Positions 6,038 through 60,000 of a stretch of DNA of 64,000 bases are shown here, in pieces. The translations under genes were made by a program, and so were the position numbers. Source of the DNA: Cloeon dipterum (lineage: Eukaryota; Arthropoda; Insecta; Ephemeroptera; Baetidae); contig NC_088789.1 in assembly GCF_949628265.1 (NCBI RefSeq), positions 25,165,883 to 25,229,882 of the forward strand. Direction: 5' to 3'. A model generated the notes under the pieces. That model was not told the origin of the DNA and ran no database searches. It was given only the letters and a program-made list of their open reading frames with translations. Within the stretch, counting starts at the first letter, position 1, and the number at the start of each line of letters is the position of its first letter.

Positions 6038-14281
<8,244 letters not shown>

Positions 14282-37660: not shown

Positions 37661-39760
37661 ATATAAAAAATCGTAATTTTGCATAACAGCCACTTTAATC
37701 GATTATTGCAGTGTAGCATTATTATTGTAAGATTACTCTAGATAATATTAGCGCTTAATACGAGAAAGACACGTCTTCAAGAGGTGGGAGATTTTCATGT
37801 ATACTAATAAGAAAGCAGGTTTAGTTTAAACACACCCATTGAATCGGTTTGTCAATGAAAGTAGGCTGTTGAATTTCGGTTACTGTTTAATTTTTTTTAT
37901 TCATTTCCACCCCCTGGAAACACACCGCTTTGGACAAGAGTTAATACGGAAGCAACACAACACAACACACACACACACACTGTAATTACTATAGTAGCAA
38001 TAAGCAATGCAGACGATTTGAGCTGTCGTATGAGTGTTTTGCACCTCTATTTGTTTTCGATTCCGGGATGAGGCGTTTCGTGCGCCACGCCGCGTCACGC
38101 TTACTCATGGAAGGAATCATAATTTTTCATCCGCCTATGCTTCTCTTCTCCATACTTGATGTTCAGACAAAAAAATAAATCAGCACGTTGTAAGGTGAAT
38201 CCTTTAGTTGTTCCATGTTTATCTTATTCGCTTCTATCACAATGCATATTGAATAAAATATATTCGACTCATGGTTCATACATAGTAATTTGAGATAATA
38301 TTCAAGTATTGCAAGTTTCAAGTGCAACTCGAAGCTATGTTAAATCAATATTTTTCTTTTTGTAATCTATATTAATAATAAAAATCGTTTCATAGAGAAA
38401 TTTGGCTCTCGTTTATTTCAACTCTACCCTTTAACCTTAAGTATTCAGATTCCAAGAGACTTTAAAATTTAAGTATGGAAAATAAATCCCTAGATGGATC
38501 TGATATTTTTCCAATCATTATCAAGTCTTTTTAAAACCAGTACAAGCTTAGAAGATTTAATCGAAACGTTAATAATTGTATTTTCACCAATTCTTAACTG
38601 GATCTGTACAGCTAAATTCTGGAAAATGAATTTTGTACAAAGATGGAAAAAGCAAAAAAAAACATTGCAATTTAGATTTAATGAGAAAATCGATTCATAA
38701 GGGCACTGCTGTATTAATTCTTACTGAAAATCGCAATTTGTTTCATCGGAGAGGAAAATTACCTTTCAGTTTAATGAAAATAAATCAAAAAATATAAAAC
38801 TTATAGGCAAAACTAATGCCATACATACTGCAAAGAATTCAGTATAATTTTTGTACATTTTCTAAAAAATCCACACATCTTCCCGACATGAAAATTCGAT
38901 TCCTGCAAGAAGTATTAAATAAAACTAAAAAGGACTCTTTCGGCCGGTCATCAGAACCCAGAGCCGGGCACTCGCCTTGGTCGATCTCGTGGTCGACACG
39001 ACAGGCGGTTTCCTCGAACTCCGTCATTGTCAGACGGACTGACATTTTTTAGTAAAAATGCAAGAGCAGCAATAGGCCGAGAGTTATGAAGGTGCCATTG
39101 TTCAAAAGAGAAATCGTGTGAGTCGCTCATAAAGCAGCAAAGGTTGTGTCGGCGAAACGAATCATCGAATAAGGGAAGAAGCACGTACGCTATTCTCTTG
39201 TTGCGACACAAATACATACCCTTGAGTGAGCAAACATCGGACGAGCAGGTAGCTACCTGTGAGGGTGGCCACCTATTGTGTTGCAAAGGAATGCGTTCGA
39301 CCAGCCGAATTCTTTGAGCAGAACGAATTGTAGCTAACACACGGAGAGTGCTCCATACGGAGATTTACGTTATTTAAATGAATTGCCTTTTAAGTCAACT
39401 TACTTCCCTTCAGGTGATCTCAAACAATTATACAACTCCTCTTATCATTTGAGCACTTGAGTATTTATTATCAGAAACGACGACCGCCGCTCGCGACAGC
39501 CTAATTGTATCTTACAATGACCTCCTCCCCGCTCGCTAGCGCACGCAGAGGGGTTGCGTTTTACATAAGGTGATAATGGGGGAAAAGGTGGCTCCTACAG
39601 GAAAAGTTCAAATAAATATCTTTCAGAGTTTGAAGGTATTTTTGAATATGATTTTGAAATATAGAAAATGTGTTTAAAGTTGTTTCATGACAAATGTGAG
39701 CTTATTTGGAGAAATTACATGGCGATGATTTTGTTTTTTAGAAATTCCACTTCGAAACTC
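37661..39760. other. Intergenic region
   Basis: Mostly AT-rich. It holds a CA-rich run ending near 37,980 and several short open frames without splice or family support. The one stretch with coding-like base use is at 38,938-39,045 (listed separately). Nothing else is recognised. Confidence 0.4.
38839..39045 (-). CDS. Hypothetical small ORF or exon remnant
   Basis: An ATG at 39045 in an A-rich start context opens 68 codons. The first ~36 codons (MSVRLTMTEFEETACRVDHE..., then IDQGECPALGSDDRP) are acidic with GC-rich third positions, like true exons in this window. The rest is AT-rich and looks non-coding. No convincing donor lies at the composition switch. It may be an exon of an unannotated gene, a pseudogene fragment or chance. 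The family is not recognised. Confidence 0.22.
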   Translation of the reverse strand: MSVRLTMTEFEETACRVDHEIDQGECPALGSDDRPKESFLVLFNTSCRNRIFMSGRCVDFLENVQKLY

Positions 39761-39789
39761 GTACTAATTGGAATTTTACACAATTTTGT

Positions 39790-40740
39790 AACATTTGCAA
39801 CTTCAAAACTCTTGTTTTTACCATCAGAATTGTAAAATATGTACACTGTTGGACTCATCTCGACCTTCCTTGACCAGTTGAAGGGTTTAGGGTGCGTAAG
39901 ATAACCCTCCACTACCAAAAAATTGCCACATTCAACCCACTTTAAAAATATAGCTTTGGATTTTTGTATTAATTTAAAAAATTAATTTGTTCAGTTTTGA
40001 AAGAAGGGACGAGGTGGTAATTTAGAAGGAGTTTTGGATAATTTAAAACATTTTTAAGCCTAAAGGAAGCATCCTAAAATATTATTTATCGGATTTGTAT
40101 CAATGGGGTTGAAAGGGGATGGGGTAATCACCCCGTAAATACTTTAGCTGGTTAGGGAAGGTCGAGACGAGTCTAACGGTGGTTTGTTTTTGCAATTCTG
40201 ATGGCTAGAACTCGAGATTTTGGAGTTTAAAATGTTGGCACAACACAAAAATTACTATAATTTCTTGACTTCGAATTTTGCACACCCGAAATCTCGGGTT
40301 CTAACCATTCAAATTGCTAATATTAACACCATTGGACTCATCTCCACCTCCCCTATAACCAGCTAATGGGTTTAGGGATGCTTTCCTTCCACCCCTAATT
40401 GTAAGTGGAAAAATACACAAAAAAAACCTTCGACAAAGTAAACATTTTTTTAACTCAAAATTAATGTATTAATTTTTTTAATATTTGTTCATTTTAATTT
40501 TAAAATAAGGGATGTAGTGGTAGTTAAGAAAAAGTTTTGGGTTATTTAAACTATGTTTAAGCCCAGAGGAAGCATGCTAAAATATTTTTATTTCAAAATT
40601 GTAGCAATGGGAATGAGGGTTATCACCCCCTAAACACTTTGGCTGGTTAGAGTGGAAATTGGGGCGAGTCTAACGATTGTTAGTTTTTGCATTTCTGATT
40701 GTTAGAACCCGAGATTTAGAGTTGCAAAGAACCCGAAAAA
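39790..40740. mobile_element. Array of related inverted-repeat (MITE-like) units
   Basis: Two related units lie in tandem, and each has inverted ends. The left end of unit 1 (ttggactcatctcgacc near 39,850) is the reverse complement of ggtcgagacgagtctaa near 40,160. Unit 2 repeats this with attggactcatctccacc near 40,332 and ggggcgagtctaacg near 40,660. The interiors also match directly, for example taagcc.agaggaagcat.ctaaaata near 40,050 and 40,560. No open frame was seen, so these look like non-autonomous elements. The right part may serve as 3' flank of the secreted-protein gene. Confidence 0.7.
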
Positions 40741-40881
40741 TCGATTTTTTTTTTGTGGAAAATTGTTAGAGGAATTTCTCAAAACCAAAAGTAACATAAC
40801 GCTGAAATTTTCAGTCTGGGTGTTTGTGTACCCTGATCGCGGGGCGCACAACGAGACGTCGTGCCATTTTAAGGAATTGAG

Positions 40882-42480
40882 TTAATCGAGACTTGTCCGG
40901 CCGGTATAGTGGCCGTCCCGGCGGCCCTTTATCCAGACCTGCTTATTTCCTACATCACTCTCTTCCGTGATTATTGATGTTTTGTCTGCTGGCGTAAAGA
41001 AGTTCTTCACGCTCGTCCATATTTCCGACAACGTTTCCGTCTAAAAATAAAAAATGCAATCACTTAAAATCTTTTGGACTCGTTGGGAAAGGATTATTGT
41101 ATTGGAATTCACGTTTAACAGACAGTGAAATTTTTACTTACTATGATTTTTCCTAAAGACGCTAAAGACGGATATTTTGATGGCTCATTCTTTAACGTAG
41201 GAGCATCATTTTCATCACCAGACGATTTGGTACCTGCAACATGAAAAGATTTGTAAGTAAAATTGCACTTGTCGAATTAAATTAAGTTAGGCCCTTACGA
41301 TTTGGCGAATTTTCACTGTCATCATCCCCGTAGCATGTCTTATAGAAATTCTGTGAATGATACAAATTTTAATTAATTAAATATGTATGTTGTGTTAAGT
41401 ACAATACGCATATAATGTGTTTCAAAATCGTTCAAATTTAGGTAAAATAATCATGGACTGCTATTTTGTTTATTTCGCACGCTCATGTCATTTAACTATA
41501 TCTGAAAATTTAGTTAAAGAAGTGGAAGCGTACCTCCATGAATTCATCATATTCTAGAAACTCATGTCCGGTCATGATGAAGACTATATAAGTTTGATTC
41601 GTGACTGTATCTTTATGCCTTTCGCACGACATATCTGCATCAATAGCTTCTTGCTTACTCTTCGCATCATCCGCACTCGAAAGATCTAATAATAAGATGA
41701 GAGTTAATAAAACAAAATTATCTAACTATACACATAAAACATGTAATTTGCATAAATTAAAATGAAATAAAAAAATATTTTTACTTTAAATCAGTTTAAA
41801 ATGCATTCTAAAATTTAGATTCCGTGAGATCCCTTCACCCTGCCCCTTAAAAAGGTCACTGTTGGAAAGGTGCAATCCAGCAAATTATAATAGTGTGTCG
41901 ACATACTTTATCAAATAATACTCCTATATCCACAGGGACGACACGTCAAAATGATATGCAAGTTGTCAAACAGCGCAGAATCAATCAAATTCAGACTTCG
42001 CAAAAATGTCTAATGACGGTTATTCCGGGCGTTTAAATTAAATAAAAAAGAATATGGAAGGAAAATAAATGTTTTTCCCCATATATATATAATCAAATGA
42101 ATTAATTTTATGGCACGTTTTCTCATTTTTAAAAATTCTTTTTAAACAAAATTGCGATACGTGACGAAAACCTCGCATCCTCTTTAGATAAAAAAACCCA
42201 ATGCGTTCACTTCTGTTGCTCCTTCCTGAGGTTATAATAGTTTAAAATATTTTTGTTTCTAAAATCCAACTACTTTAAAATTACAAAGCCGCGCAAGATA
42301 TTTCCCTGAAGCCCACTCAGATCATTCTAATTTTTACACACCTCAATATGACTTTAATTTAATTAATGTTTCCTTTACTCTTAAATAAAACTGGAGAATT
42401 TTTGTAAAAGACTCACCAGGCCTGGCTGCTGCAAGGGTCAGAAAGGACATCGCGAAAAGCAAAACGCAAGTTTTCATCAT
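40882..42480 (-). CDS. Small secreted protein, unknown family (five exons)
   Basis: No single exon is long enough to stand out, but five join perfectly: 42480-42417, 41685-41534, 41350-41299, 41233-41142 and 41040-40882 (stop TAA 40882-40884). Donors are gtgagt, gtacgc, gtaagg and gtaagt; acceptors are attattag, attcacag, gttgcag and atttttag. Phases are 1, 0, 1, 0 and no internal stop appears across 172 codons. The protein starts with a classic signal peptide (MMKTCVLLFAMSFLTLAAA, probable cleavage near residue 19). The mature part is acidic, with only two cysteines (MSCERH and FYKTCYG) about 38 residues apart, two N-glycosylation sequons (NQT, NRT), and a basic C-terminal segment containing KGRR. 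It is probably exported and may have one disulfide. The family is not recognised. The upstream side (42,481-42,560) has no obvious TATA box. Confidence 0.82.
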
Positions 42481-43500
42481 CTTGTGAGATATCAATTGAA
42501 GAGATATATCAATCGAAACGCACCGCTCGGAGGCTAAAAGATAATTGAGGAAATATCTCACGACCTCCACTAGCTCAGGTAAAATGCTTCTGGCCAGTGG
42601 GGGATGGGGGATGATGCTTAGGGTTGTTTTTCCTCCCTCTGCCACCCAAATGCTCAATTGGACGTTGGACACGCAGGATGTGCATTGTTGTCAGGGCCAG
42701 ACTGGTGGGGCATTCTTAATTTTGGCGGCCCACGAGACCGTAGCAGCCCCCTCCCCCTCCACCTGGGGTTCGCAAAAACAAAATACCTGCATTTTCCGGA
42801 AAAAACCAATACAATGCAAATACTGTTTTTTTTCTGAAATTTTGCGCATTTTTATTGAAAATAAAAAATTGTGATCTTTACAAATCAGTAAAAAATATAC
42901 CACTGCTTTCACCATGAGACCGAAAACATTAATACTAATCGAACGTTTCCAAAATTTCTGGCACTTTTTGCGTGAAATATGACCTTTTAGGAGTTAAATT
43001 CGAAAAAATTAACTCGGAAAAACCCAAAACTGGTGGGATTTTTTCAGCTGGTTTTTTTTAGCGCAAAATACCAGTGGAGCATTTTTGCGCTTTGCAACCC
43101 TGGAGATGAGTCCGCAATTATATGGGTAGTTTTTGCAATTTTGATAAAGCCTAAAATTTGGAGTTGCAAAAAAATGAAATTTAAAAAAAAACTTCTTTTA
43201 CGAGTTTTGAAGCGGAAAAAATGATCACTTAGAAATTATTTGCAATTTTCGTATTTGTCATGGGACATCTTTTGAACACATTTTCTAAATTTGTATTTAA
43301 AAAACATTATTTTTTACAAAAAAATAAACAAATAAATAACCGTAAAAATATTCATATTTCGGAAAAACATTATATGCGTGAATATGCGGAAAAAACAGAA
43401 AATGTCTATTTTGGTAATCTTTCACTGCACTGAACTATATAATAAACACTTAGAAAACTATCGATGTAAATTGTAAGAATTTTACAACAGCCCAGCTATC
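42481..43500. other. Upstream region of secreted-protein gene, then spacer
   Basis: The first ~100 bp contain the putative promoter and 5' UTR of the - strand secreted-protein gene; a TATA box was not identified. The remainder is AT-rich with A/T homopolymer runs and no coding signal. Confidence 0.35.
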
Positions 43501-45811: not shown

Positions 45812-48800
45812 ATGGGGTCTTCAACAAAGAAGCACAAATCCGACAAAACACGTGACAGCCGCAAAAGAAAACACCGGAGCAGGTCCAAGTCGCCTGAAAC
45901 TAGCGAAAGGTCGGACAGGCAGGACAGACACAGGCACCGCAGACACCACAGAAGGAGGTCGGACAAGAACGACAAAAACGAGCATTATTCAAGTGAAGGT
46001 AGGCATCACCGTCAGTTACTATTTCCCTGGTTGGTTCACTGATTAATGCCATTCCCACCGGTCCCCGATTTATATTATGTATGTGACAACAGTAATATTG
46101 CCTGCTGTTTTGTACGTTTTCAGGCTTGTAAGCCCGTGCACGGCTTACTTGCTGATTGTGAGCTTTCTTCTCCGCCAGCAAAGGCTGAAAGTCGAGAGAT
46201 AAGGTAAGATCTACATACACAAAGGAGTCTTTTCTTTACGGTGAAGATGAAAAAATAATTTAGGAAAGTTGTCAACTTAAGCTACAAGATATGTATTACA
46301 TAATTACTATGTTCGACATCATTCCATTCAGGGTGTCTTGAGGTAAACAAGTCGATATTCTAGCTCTCTAAATGAAAGGAGGCTTGGAATAATATTCTAG
46401 ACATTATACGCAATTAAAAATTCAACGTCTTTGACTGTCTTGGTCGCTTGCAGACAGCAGACAGTGAAATTAGCCAGAAATGTTGATTAATTTTTTAAAC
46501 AGAGGATTAAGATTGTATAATAAAATCTTTCCTTAGGTGTAGAGATAAATTTAGACCCTTAAACATTTGTTTTTCTAACCCTCAATTATTTAATTTTATT
46601 CGAGGAAAAAAATCGTAGCATCTGTAAATTAACAACTGCTAATTCTGTTAAAATGCATAATATTTGTAAGCTCAATTTTCTTTCAACGGGAAATTATCAA
46701 TACATAAAATATCTCTGAGAACGTCTTTCAAGCCAGAAGAACGACATTAAAAACGGCTCAATTGTAACAAGAAGAGATTGATTTAACAAATTGATTTTTC
46801 GACTGAAAAAAGGAATGTAATTTTTATGTGTTTTGTAATATTACTGTTGAAAGCATGCCATATTTTATTTTTATGACTCCTTATTGAACAAATTTAATAA
46901 AAAAAATTGTTGTCAAATTAAAACTTCAGCGTCTCCTTGGGCTGCCTTTTTTTAAATTAAATACAGCCACTTCTTATGCCTGTGTGCTAGAAATCTTTCA
47001 AAATACACCTGGTTATTTTAGGTAAAGTCTTAAATAAGTGGATATAAATATGATCAATTTTTAAACCAGCATGAAATATGACAATTGACTGAAAAACTGA
47101 CCAGTGATATTTTCTGAAAATATTCGGACTTCTATAAAACAGATTTTGAAATAGTTTGAACCAGAATCCTACTTTTCACGTTTGAAAAATCTTGTAAAAC
47201 GTTGTTTTTTGCTATATTTATAAATTATATATATTTTGAATACATCTAAGGCGCAAAAATGTCATATTTTGAGCACTCAATCGAGTTGTCACTTTTCGAC
47301 AACCTTATTTTCCTACTTTAAACCAGTCATAGAGAAATAAAATCATTTTTTAGATTTTACGTTTTCATGTCTACATTTTTTCCTCTGAGCCTATACATAT
47401 TTATACTTTAATAAATTCTATAAATTGGACTGAAATCAACTTTTTCAACATTTAAAAAATTATCTCTTGGACCCCAATAATTTTCTCTGGAAAATGTGGT
47501 CAAAATTCGACTATTTCCTAAAACTGGACTTCTCTGTGCTGTTCTTCTCCGGAAAAAAATCAGCCCTCCAAAAATCTCAGTGAACCAACCCAATTACTCC
47601 CCGCAAATATTGATTACGCACTCGTGTTACGCTTTCTTCTCTCCTCCCTGCAGATGAAGGGTCCGCGCCTGCCGCACCACCTCCTCCGAAGCTGTCGAGG
47701 GAATCGACGACGCCTCCGCCAGCGCCGGCCATCAGCTCTGGCTCCAACTCGGAGGCACTGTCGATCGACGACACGAACAAACTGCGCGCCAAGTTGGGCC
47801 TGAAGCCGCTCAAGGTGGACGACGGCGATACTGGTGAGAAGAGCAGCGGCCCCAAGAAGACCGCCGCCGAGCTGATGGGCGGCAAGGACATGGGCGAGTT
47901 CGTGCACCGCGCGCCTGAGAACCTCGGCGCCAAGGCCAAGGCCGAGAAGCTGCGCCAGAAGCTCAAGGACCGCCGCGACAAGCGTGAAATCGACGACAAA
48001 TTGCGCAGGGTCAGGGGCCTTGGCGACGAGTCGAGCGACGATGACGCCGTCGCCTGGGTCAACAAGAGCAGGAAGATCCAGGATGAAAAGGCGCAGGCTG
48101 CCAAAAGGGTAATTTTGACGGAAAAATGGGAAATTAGAAGGAGGGAGGAATTTAGGACAAAAAATTCAAACTGAAAAAATTTATTCTTGCACTGCTCATT
48201 AGGAAAAATCCAGAAATTGCTCCTAAATTGTTCAATTTTAAGTTTGTCGCTATGAATAGGGAAAGGAAATCTTGAGACCAATTTTTCCTCTGCATTTTTA
48301 TCACAAATGCCGCTGGGAAACTGAATAAATATTTCATTAAAATTTTTTTTTAGCTATTTGGAGCACTCCCAATTTGCAATTTTTTGTTTCAAAATTTCAC
48401 CAAGGTTTGAAAAAATTGCTTAAGTTCCAATTTTAATTTTTTACTCTAGACTGGAACTAATATTTTAACTTAAAGACAAATTTGCCTGTAGAGAAATTCT
48501 CTTTCCTTCCAATCAGTGAGTTTTGAGACGATTAAAGCATTTTTCTTTATAAAAAATTATCATTCTAATCAACTGTTTAAATAACTTGCTTTTAGGCTAA
48601 AATGCTGGAAGAGATGGACGAGGAATTCGGAGTCGGCGAGCTGGTCCACGATGAATTCCAGCACGCCAAGAGGCAAGCGTACACGGCCAAAGATCTGCGG
48701 GGGCTCAAGGTGCAGCACGATTTGGAAGCTCTCACTGAGGATCGGCAGGTGATTCTTACCCTGGAAGACAAAGGCGTGCTGGACGAGGAAGACGATGTCT

Positions 48801-51672
48801 TGGTCAACGTCAATCTCAAGGATGATGAGAAATACAAAAAGGTAAGTGCCTCTCTAGAGCTACATTTTAACTATTTTATCCACCAAAACCTGCTGGTTCT
48901 TAGAAATTTTTTAAAATTCAATAACTTAATTAAAAGTGCATGTTCTAATCCTGTATTTTGTTAAAATTTTCAGAATAACGAGAGGAAGAAACAGAACAAA
49001 ACCGGCTACAGCGCGTATGACGATGAACAGGTCGATAAGTTTGGAAATATCGAGAAGAGTCTTTTAGGAAAATACGATGAAGAAATCGACGGGGAAAAGA
49101 GGAAGAGTTTTGTCATCGGTGCGTCCTTGGAACTCAATTTAAATGAAAATAATCAAACATAATTCTCAGGTACGGAGAGCGATGAGTTAGAAAGAAGGGA
49201 GTATGAGCGAAAAATCATCCAGGCTAAGCTGCAGAAGAAAACGCTGGAGTCCCTGGCAACGCCGGGCTTGGTTCTCGCCTCTGAGTATTACACCAAGGAA
49301 GAAATGTTCAAGTTTAAGAAGCCGAAAAAGGTACATCAGCTTAAATTCAAAATTCAGGGCTTAGGAATTCATTTTGTAGGTAAGGAAAATCCGCAAGAGA
49401 GTGCTGAAAGCGTCTGACCTGGAGGGGAACGCCCCGTCGACCAGCGCAGACCTGGGTCGCCGAAAACGCGATGAGGCTGAGACCTCAAGCGGATTCAAGC
49501 CCGTGGACAAACACGAGGAGCAGAAGAAGCAGCAGCCGCAAGCGTCGAGCAGCAAACAGGAAGAGGTGGAGGAAATGGAAATGGACAGCGACTCCGAGGA
49601 CAAGAACAAGGCTGTCGGCTTCCTCGACTACGATGACTTGCCTCGTGAGTTAATTTGTGCTTATTTATTTGTGCCTAGTTTGTACATCAAATATTTATAG
49701 GTAGTCAATGTTTAAATTGGCACTGGAATTTAGCATTTTTAATTTGTATGTAAATACTTAATTATAGCCCAAAATAACTGCAGTATATGCTTTTTGAAGG
49801 GTCCTAAGTATAAATTCAATGTTTTTTTTTATTATTTTCCCGTGCTATAAGAGTAAAGAAATATTTTGTTTTAAAATACATGATTTATTATTTCTTTTGT
49901 TCACCTATTTTTACATAATAAAGAATTTTCTAATTTCACGTTTCAGCTCCAGAGGTAGATCTATCAGATGTCAGGTTGGATCCTGACGAAGGTGAGCTTG
50001 AGTTGCAACTCGCCTTGAACAAAGCCCGCAAGTTAAAACAAATCAAGGACCTCAAGCCGACAAAGAGAATCGAGGATGTAAGTTTCTAAATTAAGTGTTA
50101 CATTTAATTAATGTATTATTTTACTTGGCAGATCGCAATGAGGGTGGCCCAAATAAAACAGGAGCAAGAGGGTGAAGAGGCAGGCAGCGGCGGCCACAAC
50201 ATAATGTTGAACGCCACTGCTGAATTTTGCCGCACGCTCGGCGACATTCCAACTTATGGCATGGCTGGAAACCGAGATGAAAATGTTGATGAGCTCATGG
50301 TAAATTCTATATTTTTAATTGTCATTGAAAATAATCATAAAAAAGTGACACAAATACTGAGATTTAGACATTTTATAGATAATTTCTCTTAAGAAATCTA
50401 TCAAGAGTTTTTCCTTCCTTTTAAAGATTCATAAACTAATTTTTAGTAGAGGAAATGAATCCGATCACAATTCCATAAATAAAAGTGGTTTCTACTTATC
50501 AAATTAAAATATGGAAGCGTCTTTTTTACGACAGCCATAATTTTTATCATCTTTTGTAGGATTACGACCCGAATGATGGTAAAAAGGCAACCGATGATGA
50601 CAAAGAGGTGCGAGGCACGTGGAATGAAGTTGAGGTGGACGACACGCCTGTCGACATTCTTCCTCCTGAGGCTCCTATCTTGGAAGAAGAGCCCGACGTG
50701 GGCAGCGGTGTCGCCGGGGCCCTTCGCCTCGCTGTCAGTAAGGGCTACTTAGAAAAGGAGACCTCCAACAAGCCCTCCAATTCAAGGATGAACCATTTGC
50801 AAGCGCAGAATTACTCCATCGACGACAAAAATTACATGTTAGTTTTAATTTAAGAAATCTTTGATTGAAAGGAGTTTAAACATTTAAAAATTGCTAGATT
50901 TTTCCTTTAAAATGCTGTCAGGGCAAAATTAACAACTCTGCTTTGTAATTTGATGGTACTAAACTGAAACTGTAAATTCATTTGCATTTTTTCCCCCAGT
51001 GAGGACGATAAACACAGTCGCCGGGAGCGATTCAATGGACCAACCTCAGACTTCAGAGAGAAAGACGGATACAAGCCGAACATCAAACTTGAGTACATAG
51101 ATGACGACGGGAAAATTCTAAACGCTAAGGAAGCATTCCGGTATCTGTCTCACAAATTCCACGGTAAAGGCCCTGGCAAGAACAAGGTCGAAAAGCGAAT
51201 CAAGAAAATGGAACAGGAAGCGGTAAATTTTATTAAAACTCTTGTTTTGCTTAGATAAATTGTTAACTTTTTTTCTAACAGCTCATGAAGCAAATGAACT
51301 CAACGGACACTCCTCTTGGCACTGTCACCATGCTCCAGCAGAAGCAGAAGGAGACACATTGTCCTTATGTTGTTCTTAGTGGAAGCAAGCAACTCACTTC
51401 GTAAGGATCTTTGCTTATGTCGGGGTTTCTCCTTCGTGGAAATAATTGAATTATCACAAAATTTAGTCAGAAAATGACCATTTTATTCATTCTTATAGCA
51501 TGGTTGTTAAACCAAACATTTTGGTGGCAATACACCAGTTGTATAAGCCCTTCCAAGCCATTATGTTGTTGTCAGTTCAAAGTATAGCCTTTTAATTGGC
51601 TCTTAACCCTGGTTGATTAGTCATCTAATATTTCTTGTATCTTTTTTCAGGATTTCCAAGACGAAGATGTAG
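45812..51672 (+). CDS. SART1: SART1/Snu66, U4/U6.U5 tri-snRNP-associated splicing factor
   Basis: SART1 is a nuclear splicing factor of the U4/U6.U5 tri-snRNP, needed for spliceosome activation. Twelve exons: 45812-45998, 47654-48108, 48596-48841, 48974-49118, 49170-49330, 49380-49644, 49947-50077, 50132-50299, 50560-50837, 51000-51222, 51282-51400 and 51651-51672. All phases close, giving 799 residues, about the human length. The N-terminus is an SR/basic stretch ([15 protein letters not shown]). Hallmarks follow: [89 protein letters not shown] and [19 protein letters not shown]. It ends [10 protein letters not shown]...ISKTKM. Intron 1 (45999-47653) is AT-rich and otherwise empty. The polyadenylation signal is at 51704-51709. 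The last intron carries a fragment related to the 43,501 hairpin family. A dead copy of the 3' exons lies at 52.1-52.7 kb. Confidence 0.96.
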
Positions 51673-55445: not shown

Positions 55446-56368
55446 ATGGCGTTTTCAGTTGGATCAGTGAATCAAGGTAGTCTTTTTAAACTCGGGATTT
55501 TTCATCGCTTTTTTAGTCATTTGAAAATTCCAACACCTCATACCAAAAATAATTTCATTCCTTTCTAGATATTAACAGACCTGAACTATACGAAGAAGTG
55601 AAGCTCTTCAGGAATGTCAGAGACAGAGAAAAGTACATATTATGCATAAAACGCCACGAAGTCTGTGCTATTTTCTTTATCTAATGCACAATTTTCAGGT
55701 ACGACAATATGGGCGACTTGTTTGCAGTCATCAACACCCTGCAGCATTTGGAGAAAGCCTACATCAGAGACTGTGTGACTCCGAAAGAATACACAGCGTC
55801 GTGCTCGAGACTGCTTGTACAGTACAAGGCAGCCTTCAATCTCGTTCAAGGTGATGAATTCCCCACAATCGATGCGTTCGTCAAGAAGTTCAGGGTGAGT
55901 TCATGTGGTTTTACTATGTGGTTTAAAATTTTTATGATTGGTTTCCAGCTCGATTGCGCAGCTGCTTTGGAGAGAATCAAAGAGGACAAACCGATCACAA
56001 TCAAGGACGACAAAGGAAACACAAGCAAGTGCATTGCAGACATTGTCTCGGTGAGTTATGAAAAATTTCCCCTAGAATTGAACTAAATTTGAATCTTGCA
56101 GCTTTTCATCACTTTAATGGACAAACTTCGGCTCGAGATCAAGGCCATGGACGAGCTGCAGCCTGATCTTCGTGACTTGCACGACACAATGAACCGATTA
56201 AGTATCCTGCCGACCGACTTTGAAGGCAAGGAGAAAGTTGCCGATTGGCTCAACACACTATCCTCGATGCAGGCGTCCGATGAATTGTCCGAGCAGCAGT
56301 CTAGGCAGTTCATTTTTGATCTTGAGACCAGCTACAATGCGTTCAACAAAATGCTGCATCAAAATTAA
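55446..56368 (+). CDS. Vps28: VPS28, ESCRT-I subunit
   Basis: VPS28 is a cytosolic ESCRT-I component that acts at endosomes. It contacts VPS23/TSG101 through its N-terminal core and ESCRT-II (VPS36) through its C-terminal four-helix domain. Five exons: 55446-55476, 55569-55632, 55699-55894, 55949-56050 and 56102-56368, encoding 219 residues, the usual size. Conserved blocks are [60 protein letters not shown] and, for the C-terminal domain, [20 protein letters not shown] through [20 protein letters not shown]. The start ATG is in the context gcaaaATGGC. The polyadenylation signal AATAAA is at 56456-56461. The gene is head-to-head with Elongin C across the foldback element. Confidence 0.97.
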
Positions 56369-57018: not shown

Positions 57019-60000
57019 TTATTTCGAGTTTAGCAGTTCTTCTTCACTAATCAAGTCCTGAAAGCTCTTCTTTCCGAACAACTCAGCAGCCAGTTCGAGA
57101 AACGCTTCATTCTCCTTGAGCAGCTCGACCGGCACCTGACTCGCGTCCACAGCCACGTAGGTGCCAGCGGCCACGGCCCTGTTGCGGGCCCGCCTATGCT
57201 CGCTGTCCAGACCGGCGTCCTCGACTTCGTTCCAGATGCTCTGCAGGAGTGGCGCGATTTCTTCGTTCTCGACAGGCGAGACGGCGTGGCAGGCGGCCAC
57301 GGCCGCTTCTAGGAGGACTGCGTTGTCCTGTTGCAGTGACTGGCCCTGGTGGAGGGCGCACAACTTCAGGAATGAAGCGACCGGACAAGGTCCAATGGCG
57401 GCGGCGGACAGCAGACGCAGTACGGAGACCCTGAAACGGTAATCAAGATTGTTTGTAAAAAAACGTAAATTTTACAAAAATTATAAGGCTCTCCATTGGA
57501 AATAATTTTTAGAATTATTCAAAACAATAATTTTTACTGTAATTTTGGAAATTTGGCTATTCTTGAAGACATTAAAGACACTAAAAACAGTTTTAAAGGT
57601 TATATTATCATGAAATAAATTGATTGTATCAAGTAAAAATTACTTTTTAAATTTGTATGGTTTAATTCATCTACGTAGAAGTTTTTAGCAACTCAAATTT
57701 AGCGTCAGTGGCGTATTAGGTATAATAAATTTACTTTAAAAAATTTAAGACATTTAATGAAAATAAAAATAATAGATTTCAAATTTCAAGTGGTTAAAAA
57801 ACAGGTCATGTCTTGCTCGTTTTACCGGAAAACAAGCCGTAGAAAAATACCTGGAGCACAAAACTACAAACCTTGGACGGTAGGCGTCAAAAAGGAGACG
57901 CTTCACGGACTCAGGGTCGTCCTCAAAGGCCGCGTCCAGCCAGATCCGTGACTGGGTGAAGGCCTCTAGGGTGCCAGGACGGAGCCGCTCCTCGGCGTGA
58001 AGGAGCTGCTGCTCAGTGGCCTCAGGCAGTTCGAGCAGCCCAACCACCATGGCCCTCCAGTCGACAATGCAGCCTCCGTTCAGCCTCTTCCGCAGGACCC
58101 TGGCCGTCTGCTCACTGTCCAGCTGGCGCCAGGGTGCGGCCTTTGACTGTTGCAGAAGGAATACCAGTCCGGACACCAGGATCACGCCGTCCGGAGCGAG
58201 TCGCCGGAGGACCCTGATCAGGCCCGCCAGGTCCCGCTCTTCAGGAACCGCAGCCGAAGGAGGGGGCGGAGCGTTCGGGAGCCGCAGGTAACTCAGGTAG
58301 AGGCTCTTACGGGGGAGGGTTTGCGGCACTTCCAGTTCCGCCTCAGCCTCAATGGCCGCTTCAAGGAACTCTTTCAGTTCGTACAGCGCCTGGCTGTCTG
58401 AGCTTCGCTGCTCGTCGGCGGCCGTGCGCATCACCTGGTACCCGTTCCTCCGCAGGTGCTCGATCAGCTTTTCTGCCTCGGATTTTTGGCGTTCCATTTC
58501 TCGATCAATCGCACTGAGAGCCTGCTCTGACTCGCTGTCCAACATGTCCCGCCACTCCTGTTGAAGGGATTAAAATTACAAATCGAAGTATAAATGCAAA
58601 TTTTATACAATCAATTCTAGTGGATATTTTTTCCTGAAACCTTAAATTTCCTTTTAAGAGGAAATAGGTCAAAACGATCCAATTAGTTTTCTTTTCAAAT
58701 TCCCAACCCTATTTATGACAATCGCATTTAAATATTTTCCAGCCTGATTTTGATGCACATGAACAAAAATTCACACCTGAAGAAGATTGATCCGCTTGGT
58801 TCTCAGCCTCTCCTCCTCCAAATCAGCGAGACTGGGCACGTCATCGATGGTGGGCCCTTTTTTGCCCTTCTTCGCCTTCTTCTTGTCCTTGCCCTTCTTC
58901 TTCTTCGGCTGGAACTCCTTCTCCATCTTGCCGATGGCGCTTTTCTGCCCACCAACCAGCTTTGTGACAAACGCCTTGGCCGACTCGACCACCGAGCCCA
59001 AATAAGCGACAAATTCCTCAGGAAGGGCAGGTGGCCCTTCAGGCCCGAGCAAAGCCTCCGCCAGGGCAGTGGCCCAAGCGTCGCCGATCTCGGGGCCGAG
59101 CACCTTAGGCACTTCAAATCGAACGCTTTTCTTCGCGTCCGGCGGGATTTTTCCCAGGGACGCCGACGCAAAGTCCTGCAGCACGGCCATCGTGTCGACA
59201 AAGCGGTCAAGCTCGAGCTGCGCCACCGCACCGCCGACCTGCAGCTTTTCCAGCAGTGTCCGCGCCAATACTGGTTGCTCGCTGTTTCTTTTCACCTCCT
59301 CGTCCGCTTCTCGTCGACGTGCCTCAATCTGGCTCAAAATCGACTTCTCCACCACTTCCAACCTGACGACACAGAGGAAATAGAGATTTTAGAGCTTGAT
59401 TATCATACCCATCAAAATGACAAGCGTAAATTAAAATCATTTGTACAATATGGATTTTTTTCTACCTGAAATTAACTTTTTTAGTCGATGTTTTGGACCT
59501 AGTCGGCTAATTTGATGGGTTTCTGGCTCTAATATTTATTTTTAGCGATTTTAATCATTTTTTGGCAGTTAAAATATTTATGGGATGAAAATTGCAACAT
59601 ATATTTTGTAAATATTAACCGCTTAAACGGTTTCAAGGACTAAAAAATGTAATGGTTTATGGTTTACAGGAAAAAATAAATTATTCAAGAGTTTGAGGGA
59701 AAGGTCACAATTTCAAAGCGATATTCTGTCAACATTTAAGCGAATAATTTTGTTTTCGATAAAACAAAGTTCAATTTACTGCATTAAAACAGGGTTTCCA
59801 TTTTTTTCTGAAAAAATGAAGAACGTTTCTCCGCAATCCATTAATTGTGTAAATTTAAAACGATTTTTTCACCTGTTTCTGATCTCATTCTTGGACTCCT
59901 CGACCCACGGCCTGGGCACCGCATTGTACCACTCAACAAACTCATCTACGGTCCTCTGCAGGTTGTCCTCCCTGGCCAAGAACCTCTCGAAACACTTCTT

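What the first reader, a model, noticed from the sequence alone, without database searches (positions are those of the whole stretch)
40882..42480. Hidden five-exon gene for a small secreted protein with no recognised family
Every exon is under 160 nt, so no single open frame shows it. Yet five GT-AG-bounded exons join in phase into 172 codons with a textbook signal peptide, two cysteines, two N-glycosylation sequons and a basic KGRR motif near the C-terminus. It sits alone among inverted-repeat elements. Such short secreted genes are often lineage-restricted and fast-evolving.
Basis: partly seen in the sequence, partly recalled or inferred. Interest (0 to 1): 0.72.

Follow-up and report, generated by a model that had tools for sequence, protein, structure and literature searches.

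The report
Secreted insect gene under accelerated evolution
The hidden gene is real: it is one of three copies of a small secreted insect protein whose coding parts have changed much faster than its introns, the mark of an evolutionary arms race, and its tail is read from the end of a neighbouring jumping gene.

Summary
The five-exon gene is there, on the MINUS strand, exactly at 40882-42480: 519 nt, 172 codons, signal peptide, five exons joined in phase at GT-AG introns. It is not isolated: the same genome holds two tandem paralogs (A, B) 2.5 Mb away, each modelled as an open 7-exon gene. Three copies is all that four DNA searches and three protein searches showed. Between copies, exons 2-5 differ at 20-34% of sites, but introns 2, 3 and last only at 3-6.5%. 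In exons 2-3, dN/dS is 3.3, 5.4 and 9.95. Exon length differences are multiples of three, where about six frame-breaking indels per pair are expected at the intron rate. So this is a coding, secreted family under strong diversifying selection, comparable in mode to Hessian-fly SSSGP genes. No Pfam, NCBIfam or PDB relative (18, 22, 62). The window copy is shorter than A and B, and its last 19 residues, with the highlighted KGRR, are read from the end of a hAT-like transposon (32, 38, 49), so KGRR is no evidence of a prohormone. The host is an insect, probably a Cloeon-like mayfly (inferred). Function is inferred; expression untested.

The parts
42417..42480 (-). Exon 1: signal peptide MMKTCVLLFAMSFLTLAAARP + first base of a split codon (donor gtgagt)
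   Evidence: 4.5-11% nucleotide divergence among the three copies
41534..41685 (-). Exon 2: first mature segment, Cys42, sequon N51; 22-34% divergence between copies
41299..41350 (-). Exon 3: Cys78, acidic; 21-33% divergence between copies
41142..41233 (-). Exon 4: corresponds to the start of paralog exon 4a joined to the end of paralog exon 4c; exon 4b, two introns and the adjoining coding ends are absent, frame kept
40882..41040 (-). Exon 5: C-terminal segment and stop
40882..40941 (-). Last 19 codons QVWIKGRRDGHYTGRTSLD and stop, read from the end of a hAT-like element (40882-40927 by sequence match to other copies; 40928-40941 by resemblance to their terminal bases)
40942..42691 (-). Gene block homologous to paralogs A and B (211 bp 5' flank to the end of the shared 3' part); bounded by two transposon termini
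41351..41533 (-). Intron 2, 5-6.5% divergent among copies
41234..41298 (-). Intron 3, 3-6% divergent among copies
41041..41141 (-). Intron 4 (last intron), 3-5% divergent among copies
41686..42416 (-). Intron 1, about 13-15% divergent in the three-way alignment; lacks the ~1.3 kb repeat-bearing insertion of A and B
39602..40941 (+). 3' part of a hAT-like repeat, terminus facing the gene
42692..43403 (+). 5' part of the same kind of hAT-like repeat, terminus facing the gene (reversed-ends arrangement)

Best explanation
A functional, spliced, secreted protein gene belonging to a three-member, apparently lineage-restricted insect family whose mature part is under strong diversifying (positive) selection. 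SHOWN by sequence: open frames and shared splice positions in three copies; a signal-peptide exon that changes less than the rest; amino-acid changes 3-10 times faster than silent changes in exons 2-3; introns 2, 3 and last far more alike than the exons between them; exon length differences only in multiples of three; a different C-terminus in each copy, that of the window copy read from a transposon end. INFERRED: the protein is exported, folds as a small acidic protein with few cysteines, and binds a fast-changing partner outside the cell. If the host is a mayfly (adults do not feed, recalled), that partner is most likely a pathogen or parasite component (immune effector or decoy) or a mate or gamete component (seminal or egg-surface protein). 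Short-tract gene conversion may keep the non-coding parts alike. The window copy moved, or was stranded, between two hAT-like fragments and probably uses transposon sequence for its stop and 3' end.
For: Paralogs A (C4:22623989-22627830) and B (C4:22629537-22633008), open 7-exon models with phases 1,0,1,0,1,0. Exons 2-3: 57/198, 60/198, 48/198 differing sites (WA, WB, AB) against introns 2+3+last 14/332, 17/338, 16/333 (Fisher 2e-15, 3e-15, 7e-11); against intron 1 p = 1e-5, 2e-7, 6e-5. dN/dS in 61 codons of exons 2-3: 3.3, 5.4, 9.95; bootstrap P(dN<=dS) 0.0010, 0.0000, 0.0000 (2000 draws); Fisher 0.024, 0.0025, 0.0003. Whole mature region 2.1, 3.5, 3.1. Signal peptide A-B dN/dS 0.14. Frame: no frame-breaking exon indel in the alignments used; 6.1, 6.4, 5.9 expected at the intron rate, P about 0.002 each.
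Against: No transcript or protein evidence was available. Only three sequences, all from one genome; dN/dS is pairwise Nei-Gojobori with no tree model. For the window copy, signal-peptide dN/dS is not below 1 (1.56 and 1.23, on six and five differences). BLAST places the exon 2 gap as several pieces that are not multiples of three and sum to six; MAFFT gives one gap of six. The window copy lacks the paralogs' middle exons and both their stop positions and has only 211 bp of shared 5' flank, so it may be decaying. Gene conversion is only suggested: dS in exons 2-3 (0.04-0.11) is low, but dS over the whole mature region (0.13-0.18) is like intron 1. The immune or reproductive role has no direct support.
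Confidence: 0.72

Rival explanations
1. A and B are functional, but the window copy is a recently dead or dying duplicate stranded between transposons, its frame open by residual luck.
For: It lacks exon 4b, two introns and adjoining coding ends, and the stops used by A and B; its 3' end is transposon sequence; the nearest AATAAA is about 290 bases after the stop. Only 211 bp of shared 5' flank.
Against: All its splice sites are canonical, the missing part keeps frame, no stop in 172 codons, and no frame-breaking exon indel against about six expected relative to A or B. By arithmetic, about 24 nonsynonymous and 2.5 synonymous differences in exons 2-3 fall on the window branch plus the A/B stem.
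Confidence: 0.25
2. Relaxed constraint rather than positive selection: weakly constrained exons diverge freely while introns are held by regulatory function or gene conversion.
For: Introns 2, 3 and last (3-6.5%) are also much slower than intron 1 and the 5' flank (13-17.5%), so something lowers divergence there.
Against: Relaxation cannot take dN above dS: in exons 2-3 dN is 0.37-0.43 and dS 0.04-0.11 in the same codons. Exons 2-3 also exceed intron 1 (p 6e-5 or less). Reading frames are kept.
Confidence: 0.1
3. A highly diverged member of a known insect secreted family (for example an odorant-binding-type helical protein) not recognised by profiles.
For: Small, secreted, multi-exon; the Cloeon dipterum paper reports 191 OBP genes (PMC7250882, passages).
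Against: No Pfam model reached its cut-off for any of the three proteins; best PDB profile match E 0.19, to a calcium-binding protein; NCBIfam one weak hit in 1 of 3. Two or three cysteines in the mature part do not fit the six-cysteine OBP pattern (recalled).
Confidence: 0.15
4. Chance chain of GT/AG-bounded open segments; no gene.
For: With permissive splice sites, 29 of 150 random sequences give a chain as long, and the region itself admits longer chains.
Against: 0 of 150 with stricter sites; two paralogs with the same shared boundaries and a codon-structured pattern of change and indels.
Confidence: 0.02

Closest known systems
Hessian fly small secreted salivary gland protein (SSSGP) families (PMC2955719; abstract and two Results sections read)
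   Same: Family of small secreted proteins with tandem members; conserved signal peptide and non-coding parts with a hypervariable mature coding region; pairwise dN/dS 1.12-18.8 there, 2.1-9.95 here; concerted homogenisation of non-coding parts proposed there.
   Different: No plant-parasitic context here; three genes rather than a large repertoire; one copy 2.5 Mb away and ending in transposon sequence; 5' flank and intron 1 here are only moderately conserved; no sequence relation tested or claimed; expression unknown here.
Snake venom phospholipase A2 and conotoxin genes (recalled, not compared by sequence)
   Same: Introns and signal more conserved than mature coding exons.
   Different: No shared cysteine framework or fold is claimed; no venom apparatus implied.
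Sea urchin 185/333 immune gene family (search listing only)
   Same: Highly variable, lineage-specific family.
   Different: Resemblance is in evolutionary mode only; nothing compared.
hAT-type transposons with reversed ends (recalled from maize Ac/Ds work)
   Same: Two partial copies in direct orientation with 3' and 5' termini facing an inter-transposon segment.
   Different: Both copies are truncated; no transposase was looked for and no transposition shown; the way the gene moved is not demonstrated.

Membership tests
Accelerated-evolution secreted family (SSSGP-like mode, not homology) | Non-coding parts of the gene more conserved than mature coding region | tested here: met
   Introns 2, 3, last 3-6.5% and 3' UTR (A-B) 8.5% against exons 2-5 20-34%; intron 1 and 5' flank 13-17.5% are intermediate; A-B intron 4a-b, which holds an insertion, is an exception at 29.7%
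Accelerated-evolution secreted family (SSSGP-like mode, not homology) | dN/dS > 1 in mature region | tested here: met
   2.1, 3.5, 3.1 whole mature; 3.3, 5.4, 9.95 exons 2-3
Accelerated-evolution secreted family (SSSGP-like mode, not homology) | Signal peptide conserved relative to mature part | tested here: met
   Exon 1 divergence 4.5-11% against 20-34%; but signal dN/dS is below 1 only for A-B (0.14), W-A 1.56 and W-B 1.23 on few changes
Hessian fly SSSGP proper | Salivary-gland expression and effector role in a plant parasite | not testable with these tools
   No expression data
Odorant-binding protein (PF01395) | Match to PBP_GOBP profile | tested here: not met
   PF01395 not listed for any of the three proteins at E up to 10; the tool's filters drop most matches above about 0.1
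Neuropeptide/prohormone precursor | Conserved dibasic cleavage site | tested here: not met
   KGRR lies in or at the edge of transposon-matching sequence and is absent from the A and B proteins
hAT transposon (flanking repeat) | 8-bp target-site duplication and CAGGG-type terminal inverted repeats | tested here: met
   5' terminus CAGGGCC in 4 of 4 copies read; 3' terminus GGGCCTG followed by the duplication GTGCTTCC seen complete in 1 of 4 (L036); transposase not sought

The most novel reading that the evidence does not exclude
A mayfly-restricted secreted recognition family in which conversion or homogenisation keeps introns 2, 3 and last nearly identical, even for a copy 2.5 Mb away, while amino-acid positions in the exons between them diversify several-fold faster: an arms-race protein system in an early-branching winged insect not known for venom or plant parasitism, with a transposon terminus recruited as new C-terminal coding sequence.
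Probability: 0.3. Interest if true: 0.72.

Novelty: new member of a known kind. Interest (0 to 1): 0.5.

Why it matters
Genes whose introns are better conserved than their exons are unusual and usually mark molecular conflict. One in what is probably a mayfly, with three paralogs at hand, gives a direct way to ask what conflict (immune or sexual) drives secreted-protein turnover near the base of winged insects. It also shows how a transposon end can become protein sequence.

Tried and rejected
Chance ORF chain: rejected by paralogs and codon pattern. Prohormone reading of KGRR: rejected. Known domain: none. Internal duplication of a two-exon module, suggested by alternating phases 1,0,1,0,1,0: module similarity no better than shuffled in 6 of 6 comparisons; intron-intron hits were overlaps of my own flanks or weak. 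More family members: none by DNA or protein; one search scored only 40 of 1298 candidates, most of its 138 match rows being repeats in the intron 1 insertion, and protein searches go exon by exon, so distant members could be missed. A pairwise alignment of the whole of intron 1 between the window copy and A or B (32-33% apparent difference) was judged misaligned, because A and B carry a 1.3 kb insertion there; the three-way alignment and the end pieces were used instead. Rfam: no match in the window at gathering scores. Paper searches gave one unrelated-looking listing and none. The species is supported only indirectly.

Full report
OBSERVATION. The finding's coordinates are right, and the gene lies on the minus strand. 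Exons 42417-42480, 41534-41685, 41299-41350, 41142-41233 and 40882-41040 join in phase (1,0,1,0) into 519 nt, 172 codons plus stop, with GT-AG introns. The product starts MMKTCVLLFAMSFLTLAAA, a typical signal sequence by inspection; no predictor was run. The mature part (taken from residue 20) is 17.3 kDa, calculated pI 4.7, with Cys42, Cys78 and sequons at N51 and N89. The longest chains in the real region are 240 and 198 codons, so length alone does not pick this model.

THE GENOME. The window is G000:C4:25165883-25229882 of a 190.1 Mb assembly in 10 contigs. The contig lengths that I saw are 36.4 (C4), 37.5 (C2), 37.1 (C3) and 33.2 (C5) Mb, and C1 has matches beyond 41 Mb, so five large contigs carry nearly all of it. 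An exon matches insect Orco (PDB sequences, E 4e-21), so it is an insect. Cloeon dipterum has 2n = 10 (PMC6446309, passage) and a 180 Mb assembly (PMC7250882, passages). I infer a Cloeon-like mayfly. Against this, the exon-wise search found only 1 OBP-profile match and 5 OR-profile matches, whereas C. dipterum is reported to have 191 OBPs and 49 ORs; the tool's counts are lower bounds. The species is not established.

PARALOGS. DNA search of the genome gives the gene itself and two tandem copies 2.5 Mb away on the same chromosome. Separate searches with the exon 3/intron 2 core and with exon 1 plus 5' flank, at E up to 10, each list the same three places and no other (3 of 3 candidates scored). 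A search with the whole B gene finds the same copies, its other match rows being mostly repeats in the intron 1 insertion (40 of 1298 candidates scored). Three protein searches add none. A (C4:22623989-22627830) and B (C4:22629537-22633008) are modelled with seven exons, phases 1,0,1,0,1,0, encoding 165 and 170 aa. Splice positions shared with the window copy are kept; the end of B's exon 1 and of its exon 4c have more than one possible in-frame donor. In the window copy the start of exon 4a is joined in frame to the end of exon 4c; exon 4b, two introns and the adjoining coding ends are absent. A and B carry a repeat-bearing ~1.3 kb insertion in intron 1 that the window copy lacks. Whether the window place or the cluster is original, and so whether these are losses or gains, is not shown; I think losses in the window copy likelier.

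ACCELERATED EVOLUTION. Pairwise nucleotide divergence (pairs WA, WB, AB): exon 1 11, 9, 4.5%; exon 2 27, 34, 22%; exon 3 33, 21, 31%; exon 5 30, 26, 33%; intron 2 5.3, 5.1, 6.5%; intron 3 3.1, 6.2, 3.1%; last intron 3.1, 5.1, 3.1%; intron 1 14.6, 13.6, 13.0%; 5' flank 17.5, 14.5, 14.0%. For A-B alone: exons 4a, 4b, 4c 33, 20 and 23%; 3' UTR 8.5%; intron 4b-c 14.2%; intron 4a-b, which holds an insertion in A, 29.7%. Exons 2-3 against introns 2+3+last: Fisher 2e-15, 3e-15, 7e-11; against intron 1: 1e-5, 2e-7, 6e-5. Nei-Gojobori on 61 codons of exons 2-3, with the codons around the only gap left out: dN 0.37, 0.43, 0.37; dS 0.11, 0.08, 0.04; ratios 3.3, 5.4, 9.95. On the whole mature region (101, 113, 136 codons) dS is 0.18, 0.13, 0.14 and the ratios are 2.1, 3.5, 3.1; the middle of that alignment is less certain. 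Signal-peptide ratios are 1.56, 1.23 and 0.14 on six, five and three differences, so only A-B shows constraint there. Why introns 2, 3 and last are slower than intron 1 is open. Gene conversion is my preferred explanation, by analogy with the Hessian fly case and because dS in exons 2-3 is also low; the higher dS of the whole mature region speaks against a simple version of it.

CODING CONSTRAINT. The exon length differences seen are multiples of three up to the stop; in exon 2, BLAST splits the six-base gap into pieces that are not, MAFFT does not. Introns carry 0.013-0.020 frame-breaking indels per aligned base, which predicts 6.1, 6.4 and 5.9 in the coding sequence compared for each pair (308, 335, 471 bp); none is seen (P about 0.002 each; these rates include edges of the cut intron 1 pieces, so they are approximate). 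By arithmetic, the exon 2-3 differences assignable to the window branch plus the A/B stem are about 24 nonsynonymous and 2.5 synonymous.

C-TERMINUS AND TRANSPOSON. A and B stop at different in-frame stop codons; the window copy has neither and reads on. Window 40701-40927 matches a repeat found at many places (42 match rows, itself included; six of the others reach the 40927 end). The next bases, 40928-40941, resemble the terminal bases of other copies. Taking the element to end at 40941, exactly 19 codons plus the stop (QVWIKGRRDGHYTGRTSLD) are read from it; KGRR lies at and inside the directly matched part. On the other side another partial copy begins at 42692 (direct match from 42707; terminal bases CAGGGCC). 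All four copies read begin CAGGGCC; one, L036, is seen to end GGGCCTG between 8-bp duplications GTGCTTCC, hence hAT-like (assigned from recalled features; no transposase was looked for). In three of four reference copies the two halves lie complete in the order 5' part then 3' part, and the fourth has the same order with a short 3' part; around the gene the order is 3' part, gene, 5' part: two truncated copies with their ends facing the gene. Homology to A and B stops at these termini (40946 and 42691). A transposon-associated move of the gene block is likely; whether by a circular intermediate, reversed-ends transposition or two independent insertions cannot be told.

WHAT IT IS. No Pfam model reaches its cut-off for any of the three proteins, the PDB profile search has a best E of 0.19, and NCBIfam gives one weak hit in one of three members. 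The nearest described situation is the Hessian fly SSSGP genes: conserved promoter, UTR, signal peptide and intron with a diversified mature region, dN/dS 1.12-18.8 (PMC2955719; abstract and two sections read). That is a likeness in mode, not a claim of homology. I commit to an extracellular protein in antagonistic coevolution, immune or reproductive, with the role itself unsupported by direct data. Literature searches for Cloeon with positive selection and secreted (two listings) and for mayfly seminal or accessory-gland proteins (one listing) showed, by their listings, no report of this family; the library lacks most subscription papers.

VERDICT. A real family with a strong selection signature; the mode of evolution is known, the family appears new, and the function is open.

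Noticed in passing
window 39602-40941 and 42692-43403: Two truncated hAT-like copies in direct orientation with reversed ends facing the gene; together they make up nearly one element, circularly permuted around the gene.
   Followed up: partly
intron 1 of A and B (L009:3200-7400 for B); A intron 4a-b: Both paralogs carry a ~1.3 kb repeat-bearing insertion in intron 1 related to the repeats at window 39.8-40.7 kb; A also has a long inverted-repeat insertion in intron 4a-b.
   Followed up: partly
paralog exon 5 region (C4:22623989-22624018 and 22629537-22629593): Beyond A's stop the same frame continues to a TAA overlapping an AATAAA (DKTSIIIDESDVGKE*), similar to the window copy's frame, hinting that the ancestral C-terminus was longer and that A and B gained stops separately.
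   Followed up: partly
window 57754-58569 (-): ORF with a weak SPEF2_C (sperm flagellar protein) match just under the cut-off (25.9 against 27 bits).
   Followed up: no
window 47614-48964 (+), 55685-56086 (+), 12522-12884 (+): Conserved neighbours: SART-1, VPS28, MBT-repeat protein.
   Followed up: no
L010:1666-4287 (-): OATP-family transporter exons beside the A/B cluster.
   Followed up: no
L008:1508-3785 (-): Cysteine-rich short open segments next to paralog A that look C-type-lectin-like by eye, but the four scanned gave no such Pfam hit.
   Followed up: partly
G000 whole genome: Only 1 PF01395 (OBP) and 5 PF02949 (OR) matches at E <= 0.001, though Orco is clear; either few genes or poor exon-wise detection.
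   Followed up: no
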